From a virus, in IMG/VR virus record IMGVR_UViG_3300031957_002643, positions 124,001 to 188,000 of that record: 64,000 nt of DNA; one strand, given 5' to 3'. The position numbers and the translations under genes are program-made. Below the pieces are notes generated by a model, which did no database searches, had not been told where the DNA came from, and worked only from the letters and a program-made list of their open reading frames with translations. Positions 2,765-59,952 of the stretch are shown here, one piece after another (within the stretch, counting starts at the first letter, position 1; each line of letters begins with the position of its first letter).

Positions 2765-2914
2765 TCTAAATTAATGACTGCCGATACCAGTCAGTTACTA
2801 CTCGCTGCTTATCAGCATGACCGCAACCAAGGTGCTGCTCGGGTCCAAGGAACGAATTCCTCTTGATCTTTAACGACCATGGGACATATGCATGGTCAGG
2901 GATATTTATATGAC

Positions 2915-2955
2915 AAAGCCCCAAGGCTTTCGCCAAGGGGCTTTTTCTGTTTCGA
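2915..2955 (-). terminator. Hairpin terminator behind the tmRNA
   Basis: AAAGCCCC...GGGGCTTT stem closing on a GAAA tetraloop, at the end of the tmRNA transcript. The plus strand has the better T tract, so it may work in both directions. Confidence 0.6.
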
Positions 2956-2956
2956 G

Positions 2957-3236
2957 GGTTGTCAGACCCCAAGTGGCTTACGCAGCGATGCGAGCCTCAA
3001 CGGCAAAATCATTATCATTTGCAGTTATTTAAGTTGTGCCTATAACGGGCCACACCCGGCAATCTCAACTTCGCTAATACACACCCATCGATCCTATTTC
3101 GCCCCCATCAGCAGCACATACTGTCGCCATGTTCGCTACGCCGGTCATGACCAAACCTTAAAGTATGTGCTGTTGGTGGAGGCGTCGGGTACTGCCCCCG
3201 AGTCTGGTCTGCTGTTCGCTCCGCATCATCAATTAC
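2957..3236 (-). ncRNA. ssrA: Circularly permuted two-piece tmRNA
   Basis: Read on the minus strand, the acceptor piece comes first, ending CGCCTCC-A-CCA (3184-3174). A spacer follows, closed by an 11-bp inverted repeat (CAGCACATACT/AGTATGTGCTG). Then comes the coding piece starting GGGGGCG at 3106. GGGGGCG pairs with CGCCTCC and gives the G3-U70 alanine identity pair. After CTTAAATAACT the resume codon GCA opens the tag ANDNDFAVEARIAA with a TAA stop (3022-2978). GGTCTG near the end pairs with CAGACC in the acceptor piece. This order is the permuted alphaproteobacterial ssrA form. It has its own sigma70 promoter and terminator. It would rescue stalled ribosomes with a phage-specified degradation tag. 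Confidence 0.9.
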
Positions 3237-3243
3237 AAATATA

Positions 3244-3272
3244 CTTATAAGGGTTACCGATTCAAATGTCAA
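3244..3272 (-). promoter_or_regulatory. Sigma70-type promoter of the tmRNA
   Basis: TTGACA (3267-3272), 17 nt, TATAAG (3244-3249), minus strand. Predicted start near 3237, just upstream of the acceptor piece. Confidence 0.8.
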
Positions 3273-3553
3273 CCGGTTTTTTGCTTATTGTCAGAATTTC
3301 TTCCAATATGGTATCCATCACAAAATAAGCACTTGTAGTTGCTGTAATAGTAGCCGTACTTTTTCTGCATTTTTTGTGCAGCCTTAGTGGCAGATTTCTT
3401 GCTTCCATAGGCAATCTTTGGCTGACCATTCGCATTTTCATGAGAGCGCCTACTACGAAGGCCTCGCATGTGACCTTTGCGCAGATTTCTCAAAAAGCGA
3501 GTTAAGGGGCCTTGGTCCAAAACAACCAGCCAGAGGTTTCTAAGTTTAATCAT
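3269..3553 (-). CDS. Basic protein with C-terminal CxxC-HIG motif
   Basis: 94 residues from the ATG at 3553. A longer frame exists upstream but crosses a hairpin and a promoter-like region and looks non-coding. The protein is strongly basic (RSRRS, KKSATKAAQKMQKK) and ends in YKCLFCDGYHIG. This CxxC...HIG pattern recurs in small phage and bacterial proteins and suggests a one-knuckle zinc site. Probably nucleic-acid binding; function unknown. Confidence 0.7.
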   Translation of the reverse strand: MIKLRNLWLVVLDQGPLTRFLRNLRKGHMRGLRSRRSHENANGQPKIAYGSKKSATKAAQKMQKKYGYYYSNYKCLFCDGYHIGRNSDNKQKTG

Positions 3554-13592: not shown

Positions 13593-14195
13593 TTATGCTC
13601 TCATTCTAAATTCTGCATCCGATTTACATTCAGATTTCAGCTTGTCCAGCCATGCATGATTCTTGATTTTGGTCATCTTCAATTGTTTCTTGACCAATGC
13701 TTTACCAACGATGCCCTCAAAAGACATACCTTCGAATTCGCCAGTATTGACCTGCCGAACAACTTCTTCGGTGATATTCATGGTTCCAAGATATTCAGTA
13801 ATATGAAGATCGCCAAACAGCTTCAAGAAATCATTTGGTCCGAGAATACCTTTTTTATACGGGTTTACATCAAACAGGACGACATCTTTCACATCATCCT
13901 CTTCATGGTTCCCGGCAAAGCTATTCGGACCAAGGTATTCCATGAAACAGGTCGCACTATCATACCGCTGGTCACGATAGATACGTTCAAGATCATCAGA
14001 ATATTTCCCCATGAACAGATCGATAGCCGGGAAAAACGGATTGCCTTCTCCCAGTAGTTGGGTTCGGGTTCCAAATTTGTAGAACCCGTTCTTTCGAGAC
14101 CATTCGACTCGAATATTGGAACCGTCCAATTTTTCAAAGATATAATAGGGCTGGCCCTTAATGATATCTTTTGGAATACTAGGATACGTTTTCAT
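13593..14195 (-). CDS. RNA ligase, compact nucleotidyltransferase
   Basis: 200 residues. It carries the adenylation motifs in order: motif I EKLDGSNIRVEW (Lys about residue 22), FMEYLGPNSFAG (III/IIIa region), EGIVGKA (IV) and KMTKIKNHAW (V). The size is that of a catalytic domain only, without a C-terminal accessory domain. By motif it is nearest to Rnl2-type ligases, which seal nicks in RNA. One of three RNA ligases in the window. It is followed closely by no other repair gene; its upstream partner at 14198 is unrecognised. Confidence 0.8.
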   Translation of the reverse strand: MKTYPSIPKDIIKGQPYYIFEKLDGSNIRVEWSRKNGFYKFGTRTQLLGEGNPFFPAIDLFMGKYSDDLERIYRDQRYDSATCFMEYLGPNSFAGNHEEDDVKDVVLFDVNPYKKGILGPNDFLKLFGDLHITEYLGTMNITEEVVRQVNTGEFEGMSFEGIVGKALVKKQLKMTKIKNHAWLDKLKSECKSDAEFRMRA

Positions 14196-19109: not shown

Positions 19110-19778
19110 ATGAAACTCGAAATTAGACCCGGTGAAGGTGGTGAAGATTCTCGCCTCTTCATGAAGGACCTCGCATCAGCATACACGAAACTATTTTCCC
19201 GTTTCGGTTGAAAGTGGGACCGCACTGATCATGACAACATGATCATCCTTTATGTAACCAAGACGGACAAACGGTTGCATAATGAATCGGGCGGTCATCG
19301 TATCCAACGTATACCTCCAACTGAAAAACGTGGGCGTGTTCATACGTCAACGGTCACTGTAGCTGTGCTTGAAGACATCAAATCTGATCCAAGATATGAC
19401 ATGCGTGATGAAGAACACTTTTACAAAGAATGGTTTTCAGGAACCGGCAATGGTGGTCAACATCGCAACAAGCATCAAAACTCACTGCGATTATATCATA
19501 CACCAACGGGCTTGTTGACCACAGAACAAGGAAAAAGTCGTACATCGAATGAAGCAACCGCAATGAAGCGGATGAATAAGATGCTCGATGAGATGAAGTA
19601 TGGTGCATCTCAGAACGATTTGAACGATGATCGTCAATCAAAAATTGGTTCCGGTATGCGTGCTGACAAGATACGCACTTATCGTTTCCAAGACGATCAG
19701 GTCAATGATCACCAGACAGGAAAGAAAACAACTTGCAAACGAATTATGAGGGGGCACTTTGATGATCTTTGGAAATAA
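19110..19778 (+). CDS. Class I release factor-like protein with an in-frame UGA
   Basis: From ATG 19110 (AGAGGA upstream) the frame reads MKLEIRPGEGGEDSRLFMKD...LFSRFG, then TGA at 19209-19211, then continues in the same frame as KWDRTDHDNM... to 19778. Release factors have G-W-K-V at this point, so UGA takes the place of Trp. After it come ESGGHRIQRIPPTEKRGRVHTSTVTVAV, with a P-x-T tripeptide as in RF1, and GTGNGGQHRNK, the GGQ peptidyl-hydrolysis motif. Domain 1 is absent. Either the UGA is read through, or only the 179-residue product from ATG 19239 is made. The protein would act at the ribosome on stop codons or stalled complexes. Confidence 0.8.
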
Positions 19779-20998: not shown

Positions 20999-21015
20999 AT
21001 TGTCTTATAACTGAA

Positions 21016-21046
21016 GAAGCCCTCAGACACAAGGTCCAAGGGCTTC
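21016..21046 (-). terminator. Hairpin at the 3' end of the large RNA
   Basis: Perfect 8-bp stem GAAGCCCT/AGGGCTTC with a 15-nt loop, followed on the minus strand by only a weak T stretch. Confidence 0.5.
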
Positions 21047-21422
21047 TAAAGCTTGGCCACATGCTATCCTTACAGACCCGCATGTACTCTTTTGAAAGCC
21101 TGAGATTAAGGCTTCTAACGATGACCTTTGGACCGCACCGAAGCCCTTGCGAGGCTTGTTAATCCGTTATCCACAAATTGGTGTCACCACTCAACTTGTA
21201 TTCACCAGTGCTGCCTTTTTTGAGGTGTGGCCTTTCACCTGTCACGCTGTGCTATTCGTCAGACTTTGATCCACCTGCCTTGCGAGCAGTTCGAGGTTGC
21301 AGCCCCTATGAACTCCGTTCTAACAATCATCTTTGGCTTGCGGCCTCCGATGAACCCTGTTCCTTACTAGGCAGGGTATTAAGCACTTTTCACACAACGC
21401 CGAACCAGTCTTTGCGTTTTAT

Positions 21423-21493
21423 CTTCTGAGAAGGGGTTGAACCTTCGACAGATCGCTTTGAATGCGATTGCTCTACCACTGAGCTATCAGTAA
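21423..21493 (-). tRNA. tRNA-like element with UCA anticodon
   Basis: Canonical D-arm (AGCTCAGTGGTAGAGC), anticodon stem ATCGC/GCGAT with loop ATTCAAA (anticodon TCA, which would read UGA) and T-arm GAAGG/CCTTC. The acceptor stem has one A-A mismatch and a terminal U-G pair, and no CCA is encoded. It sits inside the large structured RNA. Confidence 0.6.
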
Positions 21494-21965
21494 CCTACCT
21501 CGATGTGCTGGTCCTGTTGCTTCGCTACCTGTTGGTAACAAAATACAACACACCGACTGTCGTTCACCCGCTAAGGCTAATAAACCAAACTTCTGGATTA
21601 GTCATCACCACCAAAGTGATGCCGTCACCCATTGTTTTGCGAACCGCCCTTACCCGCTAAGGCTCGAACCTGTCCACTATCCGTTAACCATCACATTCAA
21701 CCGTTTAGCATGTGAATCTGCGGGTGCTAACCGCACAGGTCTCGGTGTTACCCAAACCTTCATCACCGGTCTTACTGCTTAGCGCATCCATGGCTGAATA
21801 CGCGCCCTAATAGGCTTGGCTCGGACTTGTATAGCTGAACCATTGCTGGCGCGAGTATGTAGGAATTCCCGCTTTGGGCTGGTTACCCAGCTTATTCTTA
21901 ATGGACGCTATACCGCCCAAACTCTTATTTCATTTCCCAGTGGCCGTAACCACATCGTGAAAACA

Positions 21966-21994
21966 TATATAAGGGTCATTTTTCAGTTTGTAAA
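21966..21994 (-). promoter_or_regulatory. Sigma70-type promoter of the large RNA
   Basis: TTTACA (21989-21994), 17 nt, TATATA (21966-21971), minus strand. It overlaps the end of the upstream gene. Confidence 0.7.
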
Positions 21995-40300: not shown

Positions 40301-41101
40301 TTAGTCCTTTGAAAATTGAGGCGACTCACGATCAAAGATGACTTCAACAGGATTTGTCAATTCCATAAAGCGATCTGTCGCCCAAGTCATCATCTGCGAG
40401 CGCGTGAAGGTTTCACCCGGATTAGGACGCTTCTTTTCAGGAATGCGAGAAATCTCTTCAATAGTCAATTCGCGCTGAACCAGATCACGAGTGATGAATG
40501 CACCATAACGGTATCGCATAGGAAGAGCAGAATAATCATATTCGGCATCTTCCATCATTTGGAGCATTTCGCGAGTACTGCAATTTTGAAGTTTGCTGTG
40601 ACCAAACACCGAATGAGCAGCAGACGTGATCGCATTGCGTCGGGCATCCAGATAGCGCCACCGAAGCATGTTCACAGCCTCCCATTTATCAGGAACACTG
40701 AGAACACGTGCATCAAAGTGGGGCAACCGATGGCAATACGGTTCCCAATTCTTGATGAGAGAGAACAACTTTGCAGTTGTCATCGACGCCAGCACAGAAT
40801 TGAGCTTGTGACTCTTTGCATCAAACAACATTTGAGCATTATCACCATCGACAAACCATACCAAGCTGATTTCATCGGATTGGGTATAACCGATGACTGC
40901 ATTGGTGGCTTCCACCAAATACTTGGTAGTGTCGATCATGGCTTGTGACAGCCGAGCATCGAACGGACGATCCATACCTCTGGTGAATTTGGAGAAAGAT
41001 CGGCCATCGATCCGTGCATAGATCGGGCGATCAGTCGGAAGGCGTCTACCGGTTTCATGAACCTCGTAGTTCTTCATCCGGTTTCCAAGATCGTCTTTCA
41101 T
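40301..41101 (-). CDS. Thg1-like 3'-5' polymerase
   Basis: 266 residues. The N-terminus RPIYARIDGRSFSKFTRGM (first metal-binding Asp) and GYTQSDEISLVW (second Asp-Glu site) are the Thg1 signatures, followed by HFDARVLSVP and RRNAITSAAHSVF. Thg1 adds the extra 5' G to tRNA-His; bacterial and phage Thg1-like proteins mainly repair 5'-truncated tRNAs by 3'-5' addition. This fits the window's tRNAs and RNA ligases, including a tRNA-His with an ambiguous 5' end. Confidence 0.85.
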   Translation of the reverse strand: MKDDLGNRMKNYEVHETGRRLPTDRPIYARIDGRSFSKFTRGMDRPFDARLSQAMIDTTKYLVEATNAVIGYTQSDEISLVWFVDGDNAQMLFDAKSHKLNSVLASMTTAKLFSLIKNWEPYCHRLPHFDARVLSVPDKWEAVNMLRWRYLDARRNAITSAAHSVFGHSKLQNCSTREMLQMMEDAEYDYSALPMRYRYGAFITRDLVQRELTIEEISRIPEKKRPNPGETFTRSQMMTWATDRFMELTNPVEVIFDRESPQFSKD

Positions 41102-59658: not shown

Positions 59659-59952
59659 GTGGGTGTGGCGAAATGGTAGACGCGACAGACTTATAGTGAT
59701 TGAGTGCTCTCTTAGAAATAGGAGATGTAGAACTGCTCAAATTCGGGGAAACCTGTAAAATGGCAATCCCGAGCCAAGCTTTCCTGAAAAGGATTGAAGG
59801 TGTAGAGACTAGACGGGCAGCATCTAAGTTGGGAAACCAATATGATGAAGGGATAGTCCAGACTACAAACCGTAATGGGCAGCGAAAGCTGTAGTTAGTA
59901 CGAAAATCTGTTTCCTTATGGAGTGGGGGTTCGAGTCCCCCCACCCACACCA
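59659..59952 (+). tRNA. tRNA-Leu (TAA) split by a group I intron
   Basis: Exon 1 is 59659-59692, exon 2 59903-59952. Joined, the anticodon arm is ACAGA-CTTAAAA-TCTGT (anticodon TAA). GTGGGTG pairs with CACCCAC; a class II variable arm is present; T-arm GGGGG/CCCCC; ACCA encoded. The intron breaks the anticodon after U34, the same position as in cyanobacterial and chloroplast trnL(UAA). Confidence 0.9.
59693..59902 (+). other. Group I intron, 210 nt
   Basis: Conserved core elements in order: P (AAATTCGGGGAAACC), Q (AATCCCGAGCCAAG), R (GTGTAGAGACTAGACGG, 59800-59816) and S (AAGGGATAGTCC, 59848-59859). S pairs with R to form P7. Exon ...ACTT pairs with intron GAGT, leaving the usual U-G at the 5' splice site, and the intron ends in G. 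It has no internal ORF. It closely resembles the trnL intron class (IC3). Confidence 0.9.

What the first reader, a model, noticed from the sequence alone, without database searches (positions are those of the whole stretch)
21010..21994. Roughly 950-nt structured RNA with promoter, terminator and embedded tRNA
An ORF-less stretch with many stems, a promoter placed exactly at its start and a hairpin at its end, holding a tRNA-like fold. Giant phage RNAs such as GOLLD and ROOL share these features. The sequence itself is not recognised, so it could be a divergent member or a new class.
Basis: partly seen in the sequence, partly recalled or inferred. Interest (0 to 1): 0.86.

Follow-up and report, generated by a model that had tools for sequence, protein, structure and literature searches.

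The report
Phage GOLLD RNA with tRNA mimic
This is a known kind of giant phage RNA (GOLLD, whose relatives assemble into hollow RNA cages); the 'tRNA' buried inside it appears to be a disabled tRNA mimic whose anticodon loop is swapped rapidly among related phages, rather than a working tRNA.

Summary
The stretch encodes, on the minus strand, a roughly 950-nt GOLLD RNA. Rfam RF02032 matches over its full length at 21556-21097 (177.4 bits, gathering cut-off 150, E 3e-48). There is no ROOL or OLE match. Relatives in isolated phages (Phaeobacter MD18, DSS3_MAL1, Sinorhizobium phage Phosso) and many IMG/VR contigs show massive covariation in the 3' domain (61 of 82 pairs) and the 5' domain (71 of 82). 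So it is a member of a known family, not a new class.

The embedded 'tRNA' (21493-21422, anticodon UCA) is the informative part. Compared with 410 stand-alone tRNAs from the same contigs, 37 linker tRNAs mostly lack acceptor pair 2-71 (14% against 98% paired), lack encoded CCA (1/37 against 394/410), and sometimes have 8-nt anticodon loops. UGA ends 24 of 60 long window ORFs, so a working UCA tRNA would be an opal suppressor. Among near-identical scaffolds (at least 95%), 10 of 14 pairs differ in anticodon, against 0 of 75 stand-alone pairs. Two relatives carry circularly permuted tRNAs there.

My reading is a tRNA/anticodon-loop mimic held inside the RNA nanocage. A decoy for anticodon-targeting enzymes is the likeliest role, but this is inferred, not shown.

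The parts
21989..21994 (-). -35-like hexamer TTTACA (5 of 6)
   Evidence: read from sequence; 17-nt spacer to the -10; not reported by the consensus scan
21966..21971 (-). -10-like hexamer TATATA (4 of 6); start of transcription inferred near 21959
   Evidence: read from sequence; inference
21557..21959 (-). 5' domain of the GOLLD RNA (cap domain in the env-38 structure)
   Evidence: homologous in 37 loci (alignment A2); RNAalifold 82 pairs, 71 with both-sided changes; its 5' limit is inferred
21097..21556 (-). conserved 3' domain, RF02032 GOLLD, model 1-416, linker included
   Evidence: 177.4 bits, gathering 150; A1 covariation, 61 of 82 pairs
21412..21504 (-). variable linker inside the 3' domain (interior of the cage in the env-38 structure); holds the tRNA-like element
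   Evidence: alignment, where the insert falls in the AU-rich model region; relatives; PMC12286853
21422..21493 (-). tRNA-like domain: acceptor 4 bp + 1x1 mismatch (A3.A70) + U2-A71 + U1.G72; no CCA
   Evidence: ARAGORN and Rfam tRNA
21459..21461 (-). anticodon UCA (loop AUUCAAA), would read UGA
21015..21047 (-). terminal hairpin (GAAGCCCUUGG...UGAGGGCUUC), terminator-like, weak U-tract
40301..41101 (-). Thg1-like tRNA 5'-end polymerase gene of the same phage (context, not part of GOLLD)
   Evidence: PF04446, 99.3 bits; ORF limits

Best explanation
The element is a GOLLD RNA gene of a large (335-kb record) phage, probably of an alphaproteobacterium. It is transcribed from about 21959 to about 21010 on the minus strand, and by analogy with GOLLD env-38 it should assemble into a hollow RNA 14-mer. 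Its linker, which in env-38 points into the cage, carries a tRNA-like domain instead of a disordered loop. Shown by comparison: this domain keeps its cloverleaf under selection, but its acceptor end is open and has no CCA. Inferred: it is therefore not excised and used as a tRNA; it stays covalently in GOLLD as a tRNA mimic. Shown in relatives: the anticodon loop is exchanged rapidly on a fixed scaffold while U33 and a purine at 37 are kept. Inferred, about 0.3 on its own: its job is to present anticodon loops, up to 14 per cage, to an anticodon-reading factor, most likely as a decoy or sink for host anticodon nucleases or other tRNA-directed defences. The stated confidence covers GOLLD identity plus 'tRNA-like domain, not a normal tRNA gene'; identity alone is about 0.98.
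For: GOLLD: RF02032 177.4 bits, full model; relatives at 150-187 bits in named phages and up to 224 bits in IMG/VR contigs; covariation 61/82 pairs in the 3' domain and 71/82 in the 5' domain. tRNA-like rather than tRNA: 2-71 paired 14% against 98%, no G1-C72 in 36, CCA 1/37 against 394/410, loop not 7 nt in 7/37 against 2/410; all 19 other window tRNAs encode CCA. Cloverleaf under selection: both-sided changes in anticodon, D and T stems and acceptor pairs 4-7. UGA is the stop of 24/60 long window ORFs, so a working UCA tRNA would be an opal suppressor. Loop exchange: scaffolds at least 95% identical differ in anticodon in 10/14 pairs against 0/75 (p 2e-10); L047 and L057 have 5' (399 nt) and 3' (240 nt) domains 100% identical but loops AUUGAUAA and AUUUUGA. 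Eight loops on one stem and five on another, all with U33. Linkers without a tRNA keep an anticodon-arm-like hairpin (L004, L019, L027, L040, L090). A pseudo-tRNA inside mycobacterial GOLLD showed no detectable expression (PMC6582537).
Against: No transcript or processing data. Some phages could mature such a tRNA: this one encodes a Thg1-like enzyme, whose known relatives rebuild tRNA 5' ends, and a CCA-adding/poly(A) polymerase family protein. L058's embedded tRNA is complete (7-bp acceptor, CCA), and two relatives have permuted tRNAs with full acceptors and CCA. Four embedded tRNAs have G33 rather than U33. About three quarters of the open-acceptor cases share one acceptor lineage (GCAAA/UUUG), so the independent cases number roughly ten. 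Nothing identifies a nuclease or other partner.
Confidence: 0.78

Rival explanations
1. The embedded element is a genuine tRNA gene processed out of the GOLLD transcript: 5' end repaired by the phage Thg1-like protein, CCA added by the phage or host enzyme. GOLLD would then act as a carrier or delivery cage for tRNA.
For: Cloverleaf is maintained by compensatory changes. The phage encodes Thg1 and a PolyA_pol/CCA-type enzyme. Known mitochondrial 5' tRNA editing repairs exactly positions 1-3 (own knowledge). L058 has a complete tRNA in the same place.
Against: UCA would suppress the phage's own UGA stops. 8-nt loops occur in 6/37. Thg1 is found in only 4/50 records with this linker type and 2/50 of the other GOLLD set, and is absent from Phosso (469 kb) and from 330- and 357-kb contigs that do carry the element. 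Excision would cut GOLLD in two.
Confidence: 0.15
2. The tRNA-like domain lets GOLLD bind the ribosome (A or P site) at chosen codons, acting in hibernation or in takeover of translation.
For: GOLLD has been reported to pull down ribosomes (cited in PMC12286853). Anticodon loops keep U33 and purine 37 while the triplet varies.
Against: In the closed env-38 cage the linker is inside (PMC12286853). Ribosome binding alone does not explain why the triplet changes so fast. Not tested here.
Confidence: 0.15
3. A tRNA inserted by chance into a tolerant linker and is now decaying neutrally; it has no function.
For: Linkers vary; some GOLLDs have no tRNA or only remnants, and another GOLLD group has short AT-rich linkers.
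Against: Stems show many compensatory changes with 97-100% pairing outside acceptor 1-3. Loops change completely while scaffold and GOLLD are identical, yet keep U33. tRNA-type linkers include permuted forms of separate origin.
Confidence: 0.15
4. Not GOLLD but an unrelated new class of large phage RNA.
Against: RF02032 above gathering score over the full model; relatives share both domains.
Confidence: 0.01

Closest known systems
GOLLD RNA (Rfam RF02032), env-38 cryo-EM 14-mer nanocage (Kretsch et al. 2025, PMC12286853)
   Same: Full-length match to the conserved 3' domain; separate 5' domain upstream; phage genome rich in tRNA genes; variable linker in the same place; similar length (833 nt in env-38).
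   Different: The linker holds a 72-nt tRNA-like domain with UCA instead of a 42-nt disordered loop; cage formation not tested for this sequence.
GOLLD with a predicted pseudo-tRNA in Mycobacterium tRNA arrays (PMC6582537)
   Same: GOLLD gene with a tRNA-like inside it, judged a pseudo-tRNA with no detectable expression.
   Different: Here 37 phage examples show the acceptor defect is systematic and the anticodon loop hypervariable; host group differs.
ROOL RNA
   Same: Phage/prophage giant RNA near tRNA genes, linker inside a cage (PMC12286853).
   Different: No covariance match; distinct sequence and structure.
Circularly permuted tRNA genes (red algae, archaea; own knowledge)
   Same: Two relatives (L029, L139) have tRNA 3' half plus CCA upstream of the 5' half.
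   Different: They lie inside GOLLD linkers; the window's own element is in normal order.

Membership tests
GOLLD RNA (RF02032) | Covariance-model score at or above the Rfam gathering threshold | tested here: met
   177.4 bits against 150, model 1-416 of 416, E 3e-48
GOLLD RNA (RF02032) | Conserved, covarying secondary structure of the 3' region | tested here: met
   27 distinct sequences, 61 of 82 predicted pairs with both-sided changes
GOLLD RNA (RF02032) | Structured, less conserved 5' region of about 400 nt | tested here: met
   37 sequences, mean column identity 53% against 67% for the 3' domain, 71 of 82 pairs with both-sided changes
GOLLD RNA (RF02032) | Phage or prophage location near tRNA genes | tested here: met
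   335-kb virus record; 19 further tRNAs in the window
GOLLD RNA (RF02032) | Homo-14-meric nanocage | not testable with these tools
   Known for env-38 (PMC12286853)
GOLLD RNA (RF02032) | Transcript induced during lysis | not testable with these tools
   No expression data
Functional tRNA gene (linker element) | Cloverleaf fold | tested here: met
   ARAGORN and Rfam, 55 bits; stems covary
Functional tRNA gene (linker element) | Paired 7-bp acceptor stem | tested here: not met
   Window: mismatch at 3-70 and U.G at 1-72; family: 0 of 36 with all 7 pairs against 356 of 410
Functional tRNA gene (linker element) | CCA encoded as in the phage's other tRNAs | tested here: not met
   Absent here; present in the other 19 window tRNAs; 1/37 against 394/410
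Functional tRNA gene (linker element) | Anticodon compatible with the genome's code | tested here: not met
   UCA, while UGA ends 24 of 60 long window ORFs
Functional tRNA gene (linker element) | Mature, charged product | not testable with these tools
   Needs RNA from infected cells
ROOL / OLE RNA | Covariance match | tested here: not met
   No match at E up to 1

The most novel reading that the evidence does not exclude
GOLLD nanocages of this phage group carry a built-in tRNA mimic: acceptor end disabled (open, permuted, or lost), elbow and anticodon arm kept, anticodon loop replaced rapidly on an otherwise unchanged RNA. GOLLD would then be a counter-defence device, a cage displaying or hiding up to 14 anticodon loops as decoys for anticodon nucleases, with loop exchange driven by an arms race.
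Probability: 0.33. Interest if true: 0.88.

Novelty: new member of a known kind. Interest (0 to 1): 0.6.

Why it matters
GOLLD function is unknown, and its linker was treated as a variable, disordered or tRNA-containing loop. If the linker is a hypervariable anticodon-loop mimic inside an RNA cage, the long-standing question of what GOLLD does becomes directly testable in isolated phages (MD18, DSS3_MAL1, Phosso). It would connect giant phage RNAs to tRNA-directed immunity. The window itself adds one more GOLLD.

Tried and rejected
(1) ROOL, OLE or a new class: no match up to E = 1 apart from GOLLD, tRNA and a sub-threshold sX14 hit.
(2) UGA recoding by the phage to explain the UCA tRNA: rejected, UGA is a common stop.
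(3) Thg1 5'-end repair as the explanation of the open acceptor: predicted, then found in this genome, but co-occurrence across GOLLD records is weak (4/50 and 2/50), so only a rival. Brevundimonas phages and CcrColossus carry Thg1 without a GOLLD match.
(4) Anticodon loop as a kissing loop with a covarying partner in the same RNA: not supported, since L047 and L057 differ in the loop but have identical 5' and 3' domains.
(5) Prophage copies in bacterial genomes with the 3'-end motif: only two hits, one of which lacked other GOLLD features in my check.
(6) The Caulobacter phage hits cover only about 11% of the query under annotated tRNAs; treated as tRNA similarity, not GOLLD.
(7) My first acceptor count used end-anchored positions, which mixed 7- and 8-nt calls; it was redone anchored at the stem base, and the conclusion is unchanged.

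Full report
1. What is there. The region 21010-21994 has no convincing gene. Read on the minus strand it starts with a weak sigma-70-like promoter (TTTACA, 17 nt, TATATA at 21994-21966), runs about 950 nt and ends in a long GC-rich hairpin (21047-21015) with a poor U-tract. The promoter/terminator scan lists neither, so both ends are inferred. The RNA folds more stably than dinucleotide shuffles (z -3.8).

2. Identity. Rfam search gives GOLLD, RF02032, at 21556-21097, 177.4 bits (cut-off 150), complete model, and it is the only GOLLD in the 335-kb virus record that holds the window. There is no ROOL or OLE match up to E = 1. The Rfam model covers only the conserved 3' domain; the 400 nt upstream are the less conserved 5' domain. 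BLASTN finds relatives in Phaeobacter phage MD18, DSS3_MAL1, DSS3P8, V10 and Sinorhizobium phage Phosso. Four of them were tested and are GOLLD by covariance score, three well above and DSS3P8 at the cut-off. Motif scans of IMG/VR gave dozens more. Consensus folding shows both-sided compensatory changes in 61 of 82 pairs of the 3' domain (27 sequences) and 71 of 82 of the 5' domain (37 sequences). Identity is therefore secure.

3. Host. The tail sheath is closest to Agrobacterium phage Atu_ph07 (38.7%) and the tmRNA matches the alphaproteobacterial family, so the host is inferred to be an alphaproteobacterium.

4. The embedded tRNA. It lies at 21493-21422 in the AU-rich linker of the model, where relatives have theirs. 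In the env-38 cryo-EM structure this linker is disordered and sits inside a hollow 14-mer; the authors note that phage tRNAs are sometimes present there (PMC12286853). A pseudo-tRNA without detectable expression has been reported in mycobacterial GOLLD (PMC6582537). So 'GOLLD with an embedded tRNA' is known.

5. It does not look like a tRNA gene. I compared 37 unique linker tRNAs with 410 unique stand-alone tRNAs from the same contigs (L058 set aside). Acceptor pair 2-71 is paired in 14% against 98%, and 1-72 in 58% against 93% with no G1-C72 at all. CCA is encoded in 1 of 37 against 394 of 410. The anticodon loop is not 7 nt in 7 of 37 against 2 of 410. All 36 have fewer than seven contiguous acceptor pairs, against 54 of 410. 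Yet the anticodon, D and T stems and acceptor pairs 4-7 are almost always paired with many compensatory changes, so the fold is under selection. In the window, the other 19 tRNAs all encode CCA and the embedded one does not. Its anticodon UCA would read UGA, which ends 24 of 60 long window ORFs. About three quarters of the linker tRNAs share one acceptor lineage, so independent cases number roughly ten; the p-values treat rows as independent and are too small.

6. The anticodon loop is hypervariable. Among linker tRNAs whose scaffold is at least 95% identical, 10 of 14 pairs differ in anticodon; among stand-alone tRNAs 0 of 75. L047 and L057 are identical over 399 nt of 5' domain and 240 nt of 3' domain but have loops AUUGAUAA and AUUUUGA, with one further D-loop change. 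L007 and L015 have identical scaffolds but loops CUCUUAA and AUUGAAG. On the stem AUUCC/GGAAU I found eight loops, and on ACAGU/ACUGU five; all thirteen keep U33 and all eleven 7-nt ones a purine at 37 (my reading). Over all 37 linker tRNAs U33 is kept in 89%. Neutral decay should not preserve these positions while replacing the triplet. Because the rest of GOLLD is identical in L047 and L057, the loop is not tracking a pairing partner inside GOLLD.

7. Other linker forms. Some GOLLDs of this group lack the cloverleaf but keep a 5-bp stem with a 7-nt anticodon-like loop: L004 UUUGA[UUUAGGA]UCAAA, L019 UUUGA[UUUUGGU]UCAAA, L027, L040, L090 (read; no statistical test was made). In a scan of all loci then held, the only two circularly permuted tRNAs found were both in GOLLD linkers: L029 (loop AUGAUAA) and L139 (loop CUAAGAA), each with a 7-bp acceptor and CCA, 3' half first. 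ARAGORN accepts both when the halves are put in normal order. A different GOLLD group has short AT-rich linkers without tRNA.

8. Mechanism. Shown: GOLLD identity, cloverleaf under selection, defective acceptor end, loop exchange. Inferred: the tRNA-like domain stays in GOLLD and is held in the cage interior. Most likely role (about 0.3): presenting anticodon loops to an anticodon-reading factor, with anticodon nucleases of host defences the best fit because such enzymes read the anticodon arm (own knowledge) and because an arms race would explain fast loop exchange. The phage also carries an RNA-ligase-like gene, Thg1 and a CCA-type enzyme, consistent with pressure on tRNAs. Rivals are ribosome binding, a processed tRNA, and neutral decay.

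9. Test of a rival. An open acceptor at positions 1-3 is what Thg1-like enzymes repair (own knowledge), so I predicted and found Thg1 in this genome (PF04446, 99.3 bits). But it is present in only 4 of 50 records of this linker group and 2 of 50 of the other set, and is absent from large records that have the element. I leave it as a rival at 0.15.

10. Limits. No expression data. Many relatives are metagenome fragments. Key GOLLD papers (Weinberg 2009, Morgado 2020) were not in the library; within the held library I found no description of the loop variability or permuted tRNAs in GOLLD, which does not prove novelty.

Noticed in passing
L029 7620-7708 (+); L139 3709-3801 (+): Circularly permuted tRNAs (3' half with CCA upstream of the 5' half) inside GOLLD linkers; 7-bp acceptors, anticodons GAU and AAG; ARAGORN accepts them when re-ordered. 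They could allow a two-piece GOLLD with a free CCA end.
   Followed up: partly
window 40301-41101 (-): Thg1-like (tRNA-His guanylyltransferase family) gene, PF04446 99.3 bits; relatives in Brevundimonas and Caulobacter jumbo phages.
   Followed up: partly
G000:C1:268034-268396 (+), outside the window: PolyA_pol / CCA-adding family protein encoded by the same phage.
   Followed up: no
window 19239-19778 (+): Short RF-1-domain protein with GGQ, apparently lacking most of the N-terminal release-factor part; possible ribosome-rescue factor.
   Followed up: no
window 2887-3276 (-): Phage-encoded permuted alphaproteobacterial-type tmRNA; in DSS3_MAL1 and MD18 a tmRNA lies directly downstream of GOLLD.
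   Followed up: no
window 59691-59875 (+): Group I intron match just above the gathering score (50.8 against 50 bits).
   Followed up: no
window 13593-14195 (-): RNA-ligase-like protein (phrog_548; Pfam RNA_ligase slightly below cut-off).
   Followed up: no
L071-L151 (many contigs): A second GOLLD group with short AT-rich linkers and no tRNA.
   Followed up: no
L002, L003, L117, L009 linker tRNAs: G33 instead of the near-universal U33 in the anticodon loop (CGUCUAA, CGUUUAA).
   Followed up: no
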